Shown here: positions 7,436-25,030 of the stretch, piece after piece | How the letters are laid out: every line of letters starts with the position of its first letter | Numbering within the stretch: the stretch's first letter is position 1 | Source: Legionella cherrii | Lineage (GTDB): Bacteria > Pseudomonadota > Gammaproteobacteria > Legionellales > Legionellaceae | Direction of reading: 5' to 3' | Length of the DNA stretch: 64,000 nt | Assembly: GCF_900635815.1 (NCBI RefSeq) | Contig: NZ_LR134173.1 | Span: forward strand, 843,501 to 907,500 | Translations under genes and position numbers: made by a program | Notes under the pieces: generated by a model | Told to the model about the DNA's origin: nothing | What the model saw: only the letters and a program-made list of their open reading frames with translations | Databases searched by the model: none

Positions 7436-9136
7436 TTAAATCTCGAATAGCGTTCGGATGTCTTCCAAGGCTTCATCCACCGGAGCTTCAATTTCTTTTT
7501 GAGCTGCCGTTTTGTCAAAGAAGGGCGTTGCTCTTCCAGTCAGAGCTTTTGAACAAACCAACTTGCCTAATGTAGCCACGCTTAATAAGAAATTGCCGAG
7601 GATTACATACCATGGTGTGTGTCCACTCATCACATCATCTTGGCTGTGTAATCGTGCCTTAACTTTCATTTCAAATTGTTGGTAGGCATCTTTACTGGGA
7701 AGCCCCGCTTTATTTTGATAAACGAATTGATCGACATCTTTTGTAAGATCCGCAGCAAGTTTTGTTATTATTCCCTTTTGAGGCTCGGACAAGGTTCTTG
7801 CATAACGCTCTATATCTGTAATTTTTCCATATAAATCATGCATTTTTAGGGCATATTGTTCCTCTTTACCTTTTTTCTTTTTCAAAGCGGAAAGCGCTTG
7901 GCGTACTTGGGTAGAAAGGTTCTCTACTGCTTCAGGTCTCGCATCTGCATCCATGAGCTTCACTGCAATTCGACTCAGCGTCGCTTGCAATTTGACTCCA
8001 GGAAATTCATCAATTTGAGTCATAATTTTCTTCAGCAACGCGTCACTGTTTCCGGAGTCCACGTAGGTTTTGAATAACCCAGTATTTTCGTTAACTAACT
8101 CGTCTATGAATTGTTCGCGAAACTCCTTATCAGTTGCGTCAAAATAATCTTTAGCACGATAATACTTATTCTGGTTACGCTCCTGTTTATAGTTTTCAAG
8201 CATTTTTTTAAATTCATTGGCAAGAATCACACGTGGTTGTTTTAACTCTTCTTGGCGGACTAACTCTTCTTGCTGCAGTCGTTGTTGTCGTTCTAGTTCC
8301 TGTTGTTGCTCTCGGGCTCGTTGTCTGTCCTGCTCTTCCTTTTGCTCTATCTCTTTAATTTTCTGATCAAGTGCTGTTGCTTGCTCTTCGAGTTCCCTAA
8401 TGGTAACGGCGTCTATTTGTGTGATTCGCAACGACAGCTCATTGACTTCAGCGGCTAATTTATCGCGCTCTTCAAAGTTGGAAGTTAATTTGCTTTTGAG
8501 TTGTTCCAATGTTTTTGAAGTATTTGAGAGTGAGCCTAAATAATGTTCATCTTCGTTGCAAGCAAATTCTTGTGTTGCAATTTTTTTGGGAACAATAGTG
8601 GATAATTTTTTATAATCGGTACTTTTCCAAGTTAAAAAATAATGCGATGGATCCTCTCCTAAAATTTCCAGCATCAGTTTAAAACCGGTATTTGCAGGGT
8701 TTTTACGGCTAGGAAGACCTGATTCATTGGCAAGTCTTGCAAGTTCGTTAGGATCATAAGCGTTAAAACCTAAATTAAGGTGATTTTGCACGGCTTGCAA
8801 AAAATTTAATAATTTCTCTGTCTTATCGGGATGTGCTATTTCTTGATAATTCGTTTTGGCCTTCTCGATAATATCAAATTGTCCCTGAAGATGTTTTAAA
8901 ACATCTTCGTTATTTAGGGTATCGAGATGCTCTGAAGCGCTTGCCTGTAAGTGTATGAGTTCTAAAGTCTCAGGGACCGTTTTTGTTATGATAGTTTTAT
9001 TATCTGTATTATATTTTTCAATCCGTAGTTCAATTTCTAACTTTCTCTTTTGCAACCGGGCAATTTCTTCTCTTTGTGCAACGATTTGCTTTTGTTTCTC
9101 TTCATACTGTCCGACTAATTCATGTTTCTCTATCAT
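7436..9136 (-). CDS. Large coiled-coil protein, candidate Dot/Icm effector
   Basis: I recognise no named domain. The 566-residue product has heptad-rich charged helices at about 1-45 and 205-300, the second ending in an E/Q/R-rich tract (QQQELERQQRLQQEELVRQEELKQ region, 277-300). A helical middle part follows, with one moderately hydrophobic segment near 515-535 (WYVILGNFLLSVATLGKL). There is no signal peptide. The C-terminus is acidic and ends DIRTLFEI, compatible with the glutamate-rich tail plus hydrophobic end seen in many Dot/Icm substrates. The gene is isolated between a candidate small RNA and tatC. The effector assignment is an inference from composition only; a structural cytosolic protein is the alternative. 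Confidence 0.5.
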   Translation of the reverse strand: MIEKHELVGQYEEKQKQIVAQREEIARLQKRKLEIELRIEKYNTDNKTIITKTVPETLELIHLQASASEHLDTLNNEDVLKHLQGQFDIIEKAKTNYQEIAHPDKTEKLLNFLQAVQNHLNLGFNAYDPNELARLANESGLPSRKNPANTGFKLMLEILGEDPSHYFLTWKSTDYKKLSTIVPKKIATQEFACNEDEHYLGSLSNTSKTLEQLKSKLTSNFEERDKLAAEVNELSLRITQIDAVTIRELEEQATALDQKIKEIEQKEEQDRQRAREQQQELERQQRLQQEELVRQEELKQPRVILANEFKKMLENYKQERNQNKYYRAKDYFDATDKEFREQFIDELVNENTGLFKTYVDSGNSDALLKKIMTQIDEFPGVKLQATLSRIAVKLMDADARPEAVENLSTQVRQALSALKKKKGKEEQYALKMHDLYGKITDIERYARTLSEPQKGIITKLAADLTKDVDQFVYQNKAGLPSKDAYQQFEMKVKARLHSQDDVMSGHTPWYVILGNFLLSVATLGKLVCSKALTGRATPFFDKTAAQKEIEAPVDEALEDIRTLFEI

Positions 9137-21744: not shown

Positions 21745-22926
21745 TTATTTTTTCAGATTGACCATCACAATCCCTAAAAAAGGAAATGCCAACAATTGGA
21801 CTGCAATAGAGAAGATAACCAGTGCAGAAATGGACATATCGTAAAGTACGCCCATGATCACGCTGCCTAAAAACCAAAACACACCAAAGCCAGTATTGAA
21901 TACTCCATAAGCAGAACCCCGTTTTTCTTTAGGTACTATGCCCGCAACTATCGCACGCATCAGCGATTCATGGGCACATACGCCAATACTCCATAAAATA
22001 ACCCCTGATAAAGCCAGACTGGAGTTGCCAAAAAAAACTAAAGGCGCAAAAAAACAAGATAAAAAGGAAATAAGCACCAGAATAATAAAACCATAACGAT
22101 CATAAAGAGATCCCAGCAATGGGGCGCTTACTATATTAAAGCCTTTTGCTATAGCATAAGAAATTGGAATCCACAGCGGAGATAAAATCCCGGTTTTCTG
22201 AAAGTGAAAAGCGATTAAAGGAAAATCGGCATAACCTGCCGCAATAAGCGCGGCTCCTGATAAGTACAACCAAAAAACGGTGTTCCTATTCATGCCCGTT
22301 ACTTCAAGTGTATCGTGATGTACCTCCAAATCTTGAGGACGTGGATAGAGCCATCGGGCGAGCCATAAAGTACTTAAGGCACATAATGCGGGAATTAAAA
22401 GTAAGGCAAAGCAGTACCGATATTCTAATTTTAAATAAAGAGCTAGGGCAAGAATCAAAGGACCTAACATCGCACCAGTTTGATCCAATGCTTCATGTAA
22501 GCCAAAAGCCCACCCCAGTCCTTTTTGTTGTCCAGCATGGGCAAGCATGGCATCACGAGCCGGTGTACGAATCCCTTTACCCATGCGTTCTGTAATAATG
22601 AGAACAGCGGCAATCCACCATTGACCGGCGAGTGCTAACAAAGGAACAGCCAATAAATTAAAGGTATAACCTAGAATGGTAATGGTCCAATACTTGTGCG
22701 TGCGATCGGCAAGGTAGCCTGAAACCATGCGCAGCGCATAGCCTAATAACTCCCCAAAGCCTGAGACAAATCCAACAACAGCTGCATTCGCCCCTAATAG
22801 TGCCAAGTAGGGTCCGGTGATACTGCGTGATCCTTCATAAGTCATATCAGCAAAAAGACTAACAATCCCCGTAAGGATAATGAATTTAAGCGCAGTGTCT
22901 TTGGATAAATCTTTATGAAGGCTCAT
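21745..22926 (-). CDS. Major facilitator superfamily transporter
   Basis: The 393-residue integral membrane protein has about 12 hydrophobic segments. The motif RMVSGYLADRTHKYW between the second and third helices is the MFS motif A variant (G-x-LADR). The loop ERMGKGIRTPARDAMLAH after helix four is characteristic of a subgroup of putative efflux MFS proteins, and the repeat IVPKEKRGSAYGVFNTGFG is the second-half counterpart. The substrate is unknown. It is convergent with the acetyltransferase gene. Upstream (22927-23163) I see no gene; a weak CCCGGGT repeat trace lies near 22963. Confidence 0.85.
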   Translation of the reverse strand: MSLHKDLSKDTALKFIILTGIVSLFADMTYEGSRSITGPYLALLGANAAVVGFVSGFGELLGYALRMVSGYLADRTHKYWTITILGYTFNLLAVPLLALAGQWWIAAVLIITERMGKGIRTPARDAMLAHAGQQKGLGWAFGLHEALDQTGAMLGPLILALALYLKLEYRYCFALLLIPALCALSTLWLARWLYPRPQDLEVHHDTLEVTGMNRNTVFWLYLSGAALIAAGYADFPLIAFHFQKTGILSPLWIPISYAIAKGFNIVSAPLLGSLYDRYGFIILVLISFLSCFFAPLVFFGNSSLALSGVILWSIGVCAHESLMRAIVAGIVPKEKRGSAYGVFNTGFGVFWFLGSVIMGVLYDMSISALVIFSIAVQLLAFPFLGIVMVNLKK

Positions 22927-23132: not shown

Positions 23133-23191
23133 ATAAAAATAGCGTAAAATATGAACTGAGAGTTTGAAAATAACCCACTGGGCACTATACT
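23133..23191 (+). promoter_or_regulatory. Promoter and upstream element of the first duplicated unit
   Basis: A TTGAAA at 23164-23169 and TATACT at 23186-23191, spaced 16, form a good sigma-70 promoter for the gene at 23250. The block TAAAAATAGCGTAAA begins about 53 bases before the -10 and is repeated at the same distance before the second unit (see 23776-23833), which suggests a conserved regulator site. The rest of the 323-base gap 22927-23249 shows no coding region. Confidence 0.6.
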
Positions 23192-23249
23192 TTTAACTAG
23201 GTAATTTGTTACTTACCAAAAGTGTTTTCATTTGTTGCAGAGGTTCATC

Positions 23250-23606
23250 ATGTTGTATTCAAAATTATCCAAAGCATGTTTAGGAACGACTCTTTCATTC
23301 GCACTGGTTATGCCTTGCTATGCGCTTAATGTCACAACAGCAGCGCAAGCAAAAGCAGTCGCTGTTGCCCCGAGCATATCCCGTCCCAATTCTTCAGCAG
23401 TGACTAGTGCTGCAATGGCACGCTATAAGATGGCAGGATTTAATACCATTGTTACGGGAAAAGGAGCAGGCAGTACCAATCTGACTACCCTACGTAGGGT
23501 TTCCACCGCGAAGACAAGCGCTCCAGCTGCTGCCGCCCCAGCTGCTACCGCCCCAGCTGTAAACAAGACTACGCGAGGGGGCTTTCTAGGCTTTAAAAAA
23601 CGTTAA
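23250..23606 (+). CDS. Exported Ala/Thr-rich protein, copy 1
   Basis: I recognise no named family. The start chosen is the ATG at 23250 (MLYSKLSKACLGTTLSFALVMPCYA), which is shared with copy 2 and forms a Sec signal peptide ending around CYA-LN. An in-frame TTG at 23232 is less likely. The mature 93 residues are low-complexity Ala/Thr/Val, with the core AMARYKMAGFNTIVTGKGAGS, an AAAPAATAPA tract and a basic end GGFLGFKKR. Copy 2 at 23901 shares the signal peptide, the RY-x-x-x-GF-x-x-IV core and the GFKKR end. It has its own promoter and intrinsic terminator. The location would be periplasmic or extracellular; function unknown. Confidence 0.7.
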   Translation: MLYSKLSKACLGTTLSFALVMPCYALNVTTAAQAKAVAVAPSISRPNSSAVTSAAMARYKMAGFNTIVTGKGAGSTNLTTLRRVSTAKTSAPAAAAPAATAPAVNKTTRGGFLGFKKR

Positions 23607-23640
23607 TTCCAGTTTGATGACAATCGGAATCGCGCATCAT

Positions 23641-23680
23641 ATTCCCTCTTATTGGAATCGATAAGGGGGAATGTTTTTTT
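23641..23680 (+). terminator. Intrinsic terminator of the first duplicated unit
   Basis: ATTCCCTCTTAT (23641-23652) pairs with ATAAGGGGGAAT (23661-23672) across an 8-base loop and is followed by a seven-T run at 23674-23680, 35 bases after the stop codon of the gene at 23250-23606. Confidence 0.85.
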
Positions 23681-23775
23681 AGCGGATTAGCGCATCGATG
23701 TCTCGTTAACCCAATCCCCAAACACTGTTTTTGACCTCGAAGGAGAACACCCAGGCGGAGTCTGAGTTTAAATAC

Positions 23776-23833
23776 TAAAAATAGCGCAAATCTTAAACAA
23801 TTACATGGAAATTTAGCTTCTCATGACTATACT
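23776..23833 (+). promoter_or_regulatory. Promoter and upstream element of the second duplicated unit
   Basis: TGGAAA at 23806-23811 and TATACT at 23828-23833 (spacing 16) match the layout before copy 1. TAAAAATAGCGCAAA at about 23776 sits 52 bases before the -10, against 53 in copy 1. Downstream of both -10 boxes the leaders also share AGGT-x-ATTTGTT and GTTTTCATTT...TTGCAG, so promoter and 5' leader were duplicated with the gene. Confidence 0.6.
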
Positions 23834-23900
23834 TTTTTATAGGTGATTTGTTTCAACAATTACCTGATGTTTTCATTTTTTTGCAGGGGTATTAATCATC

Positions 23901-24599
23901 ATGTTGTATTCTAAATTGTTCAAAGCATGCTTTGGAAGTGTGTTTTCTTTTGCGCTCATTTTGCCAAGTTATTCTGTTCATGCCGCAACTACAGCTGCGG
24001 CTTCTGCATTGGCAACAACAACAGCTTCAGCTACTGCTGTAGCGCCAGCAAGAGTTAGCAGTGCCGGATCTGCAACAGCAGCGACTGGGGTGTCCGGTGT
24101 GGGTGCTGCAACAAGTACGTCAACTGGACTAGCTAATGTGGGTTCTGCAACCTCTTCATCGACGGGGGTGACCAGCGTAGGTTCTGCAACGTCATCGACC
24201 GGACTGACTGGCGTCAGCTCTGCAACCGGATCCTCATCCACTGTAACTCATGTCGGTTCAGGAGGGACGACAGCTACTCCAGTTACTAATATAAATACAG
24301 GTCCGACGAAGGCAGCAACTGTGGCTCCGGTAACTAAAGTCGGTACTCCAGCTACAGTAAAAACAACAGGTGTAGCTAATCCTGCAGCAGTTCAGCGCTA
24401 CGGGTTTGTGGGATTCCGAGGGATTGTTGGCGGTGGAGGTACCGCTGTTGGTGGAAAAGTCACTGTATTGCATAAAGCAGCTGTAGGAAAGACTGCTCCT
24501 GCCGCATTGACCGCTCCGGCAAAGGCTGTAGCTCCTACAACCGCAATAGGTAAAACAGGGGCATTTCGAACTGGAATTTTTGGTTTTAAAAAACGTTAA
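23901..24599 (+). CDS. Exported Ala/Thr/Ser/Gly-rich repeat protein, copy 2
   Basis: This is a 232-residue paralogue of the protein at 23250-23606. MLYSKLFKACFGSVFSFALILPSYSVHA is a Sec signal peptide. The following region (about 50-125) consists of imperfect repeats of the form V-GSAT-SS-TG-T/L, for example LANVGSATSSSTGVTSVGSATSS. A Thr/Pro/Val stretch follows, then VQRYGFVGFRGIVGGGG, which corresponds to RYKMAGFNTIV in copy 1, and the shared basic end GIFGFKKR. There is no cysteine after the signal. The composition suggests an extended, surface or secreted polypeptide. The size difference from copy 1 is due mainly to the repeat region. Function unknown. Confidence 0.7.
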   Translation: MLYSKLFKACFGSVFSFALILPSYSVHAATTAAASALATTTASATAVAPARVSSAGSATAATGVSGVGAATSTSTGLANVGSATSSSTGVTSVGSATSSTGLTGVSSATGSSSTVTHVGSGGTTATPVTNINTGPTKAATVAPVTKVGTPATVKTTGVANPAAVQRYGFVGFRGIVGGGGTAVGGKVTVLHKAAVGKTAPAALTAPAKAVAPTTAIGKTGAFRTGIFGFKKR

Positions 24600-24626
24600 T
24601 TTCAGACTTACTGTAGGGACATTTAT

Positions 24627-24667
24627 AGCATTCCTTCTTATTTTAACTGATAGGAAGGAATGCTTTC
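24627..24667 (+). terminator. Intrinsic terminator-like hairpin of the second duplicated unit
   Basis: AGCATTCCTTC (24627-24637) pairs with GAAGGAATGCT (24654-24664), followed by TTCATT. It is at a similar distance after the stop as the terminator of copy 1 and shares the ATTCC...GGAAT core, so the terminator seems to have been duplicated too, though the U-tract is weaker. Confidence 0.65.
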
Positions 24668-24799: not shown

Positions 24800-25030
24800 T
24801 TAGGACGATTGTTCCTTTTTATATTGCTCATCTGCTTCTTTAGCCTTACGTTGATTTTCTTGTAATTGAACTGCATTAAGTTGCTCTTGCCACAACGAGG
24901 CCGCTTGGGCTTTAAGCTGATTAAATTTTCTTAGTAATAAGCCTAAATGGGTTGCCAGCATCGGGAGTTTTTTGGGTCCAAAGACAATGAGGGCAACAAT
25001 CAAAATGACAAGAAGTTCACCACTGCTCAT
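24800..25030 (-). CDS. tatB: Sec-independent protein translocase subunit TatB
   Basis: TatB forms the receptor complex with TatC for twin-arginine signal peptides. The 76-residue protein has one N-terminal membrane helix (ELLVILIVALIVFGPKKLPML), in which FGPKKLP is the Tat hallmark hinge, and then an amphipathic helix and a charged tail. It is short for a TatB (E. coli 171), but TatB in many bacteria is of this size; position after tatA supports B rather than a second A. It overlaps tatA by 4 bases. It is the last gene of the ubiE-ubiJ-ubiB-tatA-tatB run. Confidence 0.85.
   Translation of the reverse strand: MSSGELLVILIVALIVFGPKKLPMLATHLGLLLRKFNQLKAQAASLWQEQLNAVQLQENQRKAKEADEQYKKEQSS

What the first reader, a model, noticed from the sequence alone, without database searches (positions are those of the whole stretch)
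23133..24667. Tandem duplication of a whole transcription unit for exported Ala/Thr-rich proteins
Both units share the upstream block TAAAAATAGCG at 52-53 bases before the -10, the TATACT box, the leader, the signal peptide, the RY...GF...IV core, the GFKKR end and the terminator core. Copy 2 has expanded a V-GSAT-S-x-TG repeat. I do not know this protein family. The conserved distance of the upstream block suggests co-regulation, and the low-complexity exported product suggests a surface or secreted role.
Basis: partly seen in the sequence, partly recalled or inferred. Interest (0 to 1): 0.7.

Follow-up and report, generated by a model that had tools for sequence, protein, structure and literature searches.

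The report
Secreted acid-free protein pair in Legionella
Two neighbouring genes in a Legionella species encode small, apparently exported proteins with many positive and no negative charges, found so far only in close relatives, and the shared block in front of both genes is the leftover tail of a lost regulator gene.

Summary
Two complete units stand in tandem at 23134-24667, between an MFS gene and tatB. Relatives were found in 3 further Legionella genomes (4 of 45). The duplication predates the split from L. steigerwaltii. L. steelei lacks the genes, and in Legionella sp. PATHC038 the two copies have collapsed into one chimeric gene. The proteins are under purifying selection (dN/dS 0.23-0.50).

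Two points are new. (1) The 'upstream block' is the decayed 3' end of a lysR gene that still stands beside tatB in related species. It was duplicated with the unit and lies exactly 52 nt before the -10 box in all 7 units. It may now serve as an upstream promoter element, but the evidence for that is mixed. No regulon was found: in 45 genomes only the 7 units score highly. (2) All 7 proteins lack Asp and Glu, with predicted pI near 12.

Most likely role: exported, disordered polycations that bind polyanions in the envelope or outside the cell. This resembles E. coli Asr in working principle, without sequence relationship. The history is well supported; the function is inferred.

The parts
23134..23163 (+). 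Upstream block of unit 1: relic of a lysR 3' end (the match reaches up to about 23120)
23164..23191 (+). Promoter of unit 1: TTGAAA, 16 nt, TATACT
   Evidence: conserved in 7 units
23200..23217 (+). 5-pair hairpin near the predicted 5' end of the mRNA
   Evidence: pairs kept in 7 of 7 units; covariation not significant
23250..23606 (+). Copy 1, 118 aa: signal-peptide-like start, RYKMAGFNTIV core, GFKKR end, no Asp or Glu
23639..23680 (+). Terminator-like hairpin with T run
23776..23805 (+). Upstream block of unit 2: second copy of the lysR relic (similarity starts about 23763)
23806..23833 (+). Promoter of unit 2: TGGAAA, 16 nt, TATACT
23842..23864 (+). Leader hairpin of unit 2
23901..24599 (+). 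Copy 2, 232 aa: low-complexity repeat region, RYGFVGFRGIV core, GFKKR end, no Asp or Glu
24627..24664 (+). Terminator-like hairpin of unit 2 with a poor T tail
   Evidence: I2; not called

Best explanation
An orphan gene for a small exported, acid-free, strongly basic and probably disordered protein came to stand directly behind a decaying lysR gene in the common ancestor of L. steigerwaltii, L. steelei and the window's group. The whole unit, lysR tail included, was then duplicated in tandem. Strongly supported: duplication before the species split; purifying selection on the proteins; lysR origin of the upstream block; fixed spacing of the block; later absence in L. steelei and chimera formation in PATHC038. 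Inferred: each unit has its own sigma-70 promoter, to which the A/T-rich relic contributes as an UP-like element; a 5' hairpin may stabilise the mRNA; the proteins leave the cytoplasm by Sec and act as polycations that bind polyanions (LPS, extracellular DNA or other proteins), in the manner of the disordered periplasmic protein Asr of E. coli. Separate confidence: history about 0.85, promoter role of the relic about 0.4, polyanion binding as the function about 0.35.
For: lysR origin: a profile made only from the 7 units was run on 28 loci; besides the two loci that hold the family it hit 5 (E 4e-5 to 0.0017 in that small search), each at the 3' end of lysR. Against five lysR ends, the four copy-1-type units score 20-28 with 0 of 300 shuffles as good in 20 of 20 comparisons; in scans of three whole loci the lysR end is their best 60-nt window in 12 of 12 cases. 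Among 11 genomes with this lysR, six share the same C-terminal end; there all 24 comparisons with copy-1-type units have 0 of 200 shuffles as good (scores 16-28; the best of 62 other windows per locus, scored with two units, 11-14.5). Timing: copy-2 genes of own, PATHC035 and L. steigerwaltii form a clade with support 100 in DNA and 97 in protein. Selection: dN/dS 0.23, 0.23, 0.33, 0.50 and 0.28 for five between-species pairs, against 0.02-0.05 for ubiB and ubiE. Charge: 0 Asp/Glu in 7 of 7 proteins; only these two of 59 non-overlapping window ORFs of 100 aa or more lack both. 70 differences own2/st2 without an acidic residue (6.7 expected, P 0.0009), 41 for own1/st1 (3.6 expected, P 0.022). 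Chimera switch in PATHC038.
Against: No transcript or protein data. No signal-peptide predictor was run; export rests on inspection. Copy-2-type units match lysR less well: in whole-locus scans the lysR end is their best window in 5 of 9 cases, and 0-16 of 200 shuffles do as well. Two further lysR-bearing loci among the 28 (L031, L041) gave no profile hit, and 5 of 11 lysR genes with another C-terminus do not match beyond one isolated case. Constraint on the block is mixed: own1/st1 0.80 and st1/st2 0.80 exceed all 100 shuffles, but own2/st2 0.67 and own1/own2 0.70 do not; between own and PATHC035 the block (0.87, 0.77) is no more conserved than the spacer (0.83) or the sequence above it (0.89, 0.85); and the sequence above copy 1 in L. 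steigerwaltii is next to a transposase gene, so it is a poor yardstick. dS between the two copies is saturated in own (2.6) and PATHC035 (2.2) but only 0.97 in L. steigerwaltii, about the species distance. The acid-gain test is rough and not significant for close pairs (P 0.55, 0.12, 0.17). Hairpin covariation is not significant (63 of 500 shuffles). The structure model is poor (pLDDT 48.6). The source of the coding sequence is unknown.
Confidence: 0.47

Rival explanations
1. The upstream block is the binding site of a regulator that controls a wider set of genes.
For: Fixed 52-nt spacing in 7 units; position just above the -35 box.
Against: Matches the lysR 3' end; the exact pattern occurs only in these two units in the genome. 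With the promoter-leader model 41 of 45 genomes have some match at E <= 0.5, but outside the 7 units none exceeds 21.2 bits (E 0.0013) (stricter filters, 86 candidates scored per genome). A site used at two promoters only, or a more degenerate motif, is not excluded.
Confidence: 0.12
2. The block is only passive debris: it came along with the duplication and has no function now.
For: lysR origin; between own and PATHC035 it is no more conserved than its surroundings.
Against: No indel between block and -10 box in 7 units; own1/st1 0.80 identical while the inter-unit spacer is at shuffle level, 0.55.
Confidence: 0.4
3. The gene came in by horizontal transfer from an unsampled source and only landed behind lysR.
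For: No similarity of the gene bodies to the lysR-tatB spacers of other species (36 body comparisons, least 11 of 200 shuffles as good); transposase genes beside copy 1 in L. steigerwaltii.
Against: No donor in three searches of 5.8 billion proteins (in two only the best 7,992-7,994 candidates were scored, and the method needs shared 5-residue words).
Confidence: 0.4
4. The proteins carry a pilus/secretin N-terminal domain (PF13629) and serve a secretion or pilus machine.
For: 3 of 8 members hit PF13629, best E 0.012.
Against: 13.7 bits against a cut-off of 23 for copy 1 of the window; 5 of 8 members have no hit to it; no pilus or secretin gene was noticed among the adjacent genes listed.
Confidence: 0.03

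Closest known systems
Asr, acid shock protein of E. coli
   Same: Small exported low-complexity charged protein; described as a periplasmic, intrinsically disordered chaperone that is very abundant in acid (PMC10746267, passages)
   Different: No Asr family among Pfam matches of 8 members up to E 5; acid induction untested; here no Asp or Glu at all and two short conserved motifs
Lineage-specific (orphan) small secreted proteins of bacteria
   Same: Narrow distribution (4 of 45 genomes), fast evolution, low complexity, signal-peptide-like start
   Different: Tandem pair whose upstream region can be traced to the tail of a lost lysR gene, with a documented collapse into a chimera
UP elements of strong sigma-70 promoters (recalled)
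   Same: A/T-rich sequence above the -35 box at fixed spacing
   Different: Inherited from a coding 3' end; activity untested; fit to the UP consensus was not computed

Membership tests
Asr family (acid shock protein) | Match to the family profile in Pfam | tested here: not met
   8 members scanned to E 5; three families hit, none of them Asr
Asr family (acid shock protein) | Exported, disordered, charged low-complexity protein | tested here: inconclusive
   Composition computed; export by inspection only; low pLDDT fits disorder but does not show it
Asr family (acid shock protein) | Induction by acid | not testable with these tools
   no expression data
PF13629 pilus/secretin N-terminal domain | Score above the gathering cut-off | tested here: not met
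   13.7 bits against 23; 3 of 8 members hit, best E 0.012
Tandem duplicate gene pair | Two homologous complete units, adjacent, same strand | tested here: met
Orphan gene family | No relatives outside a narrow clade | tested here: met
   within the limits of those searches
Sec-exported protein | Cleavable signal peptide by a predictor | not tested
   no predictor at hand; start read by eye

The most novel reading that the evidence does not exclude
A young gene was born or captured behind a dying regulator gene and recruited that gene's 3' coding tail as its upstream promoter element; the tail was duplicated with the gene and kept at fixed spacing for both copies, while the product settled into an acid-free secreted polycation held by selection.
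Probability: 0.3. Interest if true: 0.65.

Novelty: new member of a known kind. Interest (0 to 1): 0.42.

Why it matters
The locus is a comparative series (intact lysR; relic alone; relic plus gene pair; relic plus chimera) showing how the upstream region of an orphan gene can come from the end of a dead neighbour, and how tandem copies later fuse. The absence of acidic residues across species is a testable constraint on an uncharacterised protein family. It also warns against reading a conserved upstream block as a regulator site without looking at what stood there before.

Tried and rejected
Pfam and NCBIfam gave no family for the window proteins apart from a sub-threshold PF13629 match. A profile search of solved-structure sequences gave 0 matches. 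AlphaFold2 on copy 1 gave pLDDT 48.6, so no fold search was made. A regulon was sought with the exact pattern and a promoter-leader model. Origin from the spacers of other species was tested in 72 comparisons; the best was 3 of 200 shuffles (spacer of sp. 515359 against a steigerwaltii promoter-leader), which is expected at that number of tests. A remnant of the gene's 3' flank in L. steelei was sought in 3 further comparisons without success (12-62 of 200 shuffles as good). Literature: six searches, of which I saw listings and abstract starts, showed no paper on this gene family among the rows listed; one search was loose (469,389 papers, 8 listed). One paper, PMC10746267, was seen as passages. 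That the family is not in print rests on these searches of an open-licence library only.

Full report
What is there. The window lies in a 3.73-Mb chromosome whose nearest named relatives are Legionella. Between an MFS-type gene (21745-22926, minus) and tatB (24800-25030, minus; name from its sequence and neighbours, recalled) stand two units on the plus strand. Each has a sigma-70-like promoter with a 16-nt spacer ending in TATACT, 58 or 67 nt between the -10 box and the ATG, a gene with a signal-peptide-like start, a core RY..GF..IV, the end GFKKR and a terminator-like hairpin. The exact block-to-TATACT pattern occurs only twice in the genome.

Relatives. The family profile matches 4 of 45 Legionella genomes at E <= 0.01: the window's own, G017 (Legionella sp. 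PATHC035, pair), G019 (L. steigerwaltii, pair) and G042 (Legionella sp. PATHC038, one gene). Names follow from contig lengths. Copy 2 searched in 92 genomes gives 12 at E <= 1; outside these four the best is E 0.019. In 28 tatB-anchored loci from public genome contigs, tblastn at E <= 1 finds the family in two, PATHC038 and L. steigerwaltii. Three searches of 5.8 billion proteins return three clusters: one named for PATHC035, one for L. steigerwaltii, and one unnamed that is 95% identical to the PATHC038 gene.

History. A tree from three neighbouring housekeeping proteins (26 loci, 1,020 columns, midpoint root) supports own + PATHC035 (99), these with PATHC038 (100), L. steigerwaltii + L. steelei (95) and all five together (97). 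In trees of the units, without the chimera, the copy-2 genes of own, PATHC035 and L. steigerwaltii form a clade (100 for 241 columns of promoter, leader and gene start; 97 for 92 protein columns), so the duplication predates the split. One number does not fit neatly: dS between copies is 2.6 in own and 2.2 in PATHC035 but 0.97 in L. steigerwaltii, about the distance between the species (0.72 and 0.98); exchange between its copies would explain this. L. steelei has tatB and the MFS gene 480 bp apart with no family gene between them. Given the tree, it most likely lost the pair. In PATHC038 the one gene of 135 aa resembles copy 1 from the promoter onward and copy 2 from about coding position 270-300 through the terminator: identity to own1/own2 goes from 0.92/0.55 to 0.15/0.85 in neighbouring windows. 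That is the product expected of recombination between the tandem copies.

The upstream block. A profile made from the 7 units alone hit, among 28 loci and besides the two family loci, five others, each at the 3' end of a lysR gene that converges on tatB. Two further loci in that set with a lysR (L031, L041) gave no hit. In one search the four copy-1-type units match five of six lysR ends with 0 of 300 shuffles as good (20 of 20), and the sixth (L031) not at all. In whole-locus scans the lysR end is their best window in 12 of 12 cases, and that of the copy-2-type units in 5 of 9. Of 11 Legionella genomes with this lysR, six share the C-terminal end. There all 24 copy-1-type comparisons have 0 of 200 shuffles as good, and the 18 copy-2-type ones 0-16 of 200. 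The five with a different end do not match, apart from one weak case. The window's genome keeps no close lysR (best match 26% identical). L. steelei keeps a piece of the tail without the genes. So the block is vestigial coding sequence that was duplicated with the unit.

Does the relic do something now? The spacing to the -10 box is 52 nt without gaps in 7 of 7 units. Between own and L. steigerwaltii, block identity is 0.80 (copy 1) and 0.67 (copy 2), against 0.55 for the inter-unit spacer; only the copy-1 value exceeds all 100 shuffles. The two steigerwaltii copies share 0.80, own1/own2 0.70 (within shuffles). Between own and PATHC035 the block is not better conserved than its surroundings. 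I think a role as upstream promoter element somewhat possible (0.4); passive debris is about as likely.

The leader. A 5-pair hairpin near the predicted 5' end forms in 7 of 7 units, with one double change and three G-U pairs; 63 of 500 shuffles reach this covariation, so support is modest.

The proteins. dN/dS between species is 0.23-0.50 in five comparisons, against 0.02-0.05 for ubiB and ubiE: constrained, but fast. None of the 7 proteins (105-232 aa) has an Asp or Glu, and the predicted pI of the mature parts is about 12. Of 59 non-overlapping window ORFs of at least 100 aa only these two lack acidic residues (median fraction 0.10). Single-base neighbours would give 8-10% acidic replacements. 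Own2/st2 has 70 differences without one (P 0.0009), own1/st1 41 (P 0.022), own1/own2 51 (P 0.009); close pairs are uninformative (P 0.12-0.55), and the pairs are not independent. The middle of copy 2 differs in repeat unit and length between species. AlphaFold2 gives no confident fold.

Function. From composition and the signal-like start I take these to be exported polycations that bind polyanions. Asr of E. coli (PMC10746267, passages) is the nearest in working principle, without sequence relationship. This is inference.

Wider locus. In L. bozemanae (L040) and L. wadsworthii (L031) a lysR gene and a biosynthetic cluster stand between tatB and the MFS gene. The corresponding genes of L. anisa (L042) match a pvcA-type isonitrile synthase, dioxygenases and P450s, all below the curated cut-offs; the equation of the L040 and L031 genes with these rests on position and appearance. 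The window's MFS gene thus looks like the last survivor of that cluster.

Noticed in passing
21745-22926: The MFS gene beside the pair looks like the surviving last gene of a lysR / pvcA-like / dioxygenase / P450 / MFS cluster that some relatives still carry between tatB and MFS.
   Followed up: partly
L043 6238-6756; L077 154-663 nt after lysR; L027 6284-6853; L028 6283-6852: Other small uncharacterised genes (169-189 aa, rich in Lys and Glu by eye) stand downstream of tatB in other Legionella species, so the interval looks like a place of repeated small-gene turnover; the L043 gene has no NCBIfam match.
   Followed up: partly
L058 3656-5023: In L. steigerwaltii an IS701-family transposase gene (above cut-off) and a 92-aa IS110-like piece (below cut-off) lie directly upstream of copy 1, where the window has the MFS gene.
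   Followed up: partly
L031 6276-6794: L. wadsworthii has a highly repetitive ORF (repeated NQSRNVERM-like units) between tatB and lysR.
   Followed up: no
L030 6001-6225: L. steigerwaltii has a second tatB-like gene, 83% identical to the window's, on another contig among other genes.
   Followed up: no
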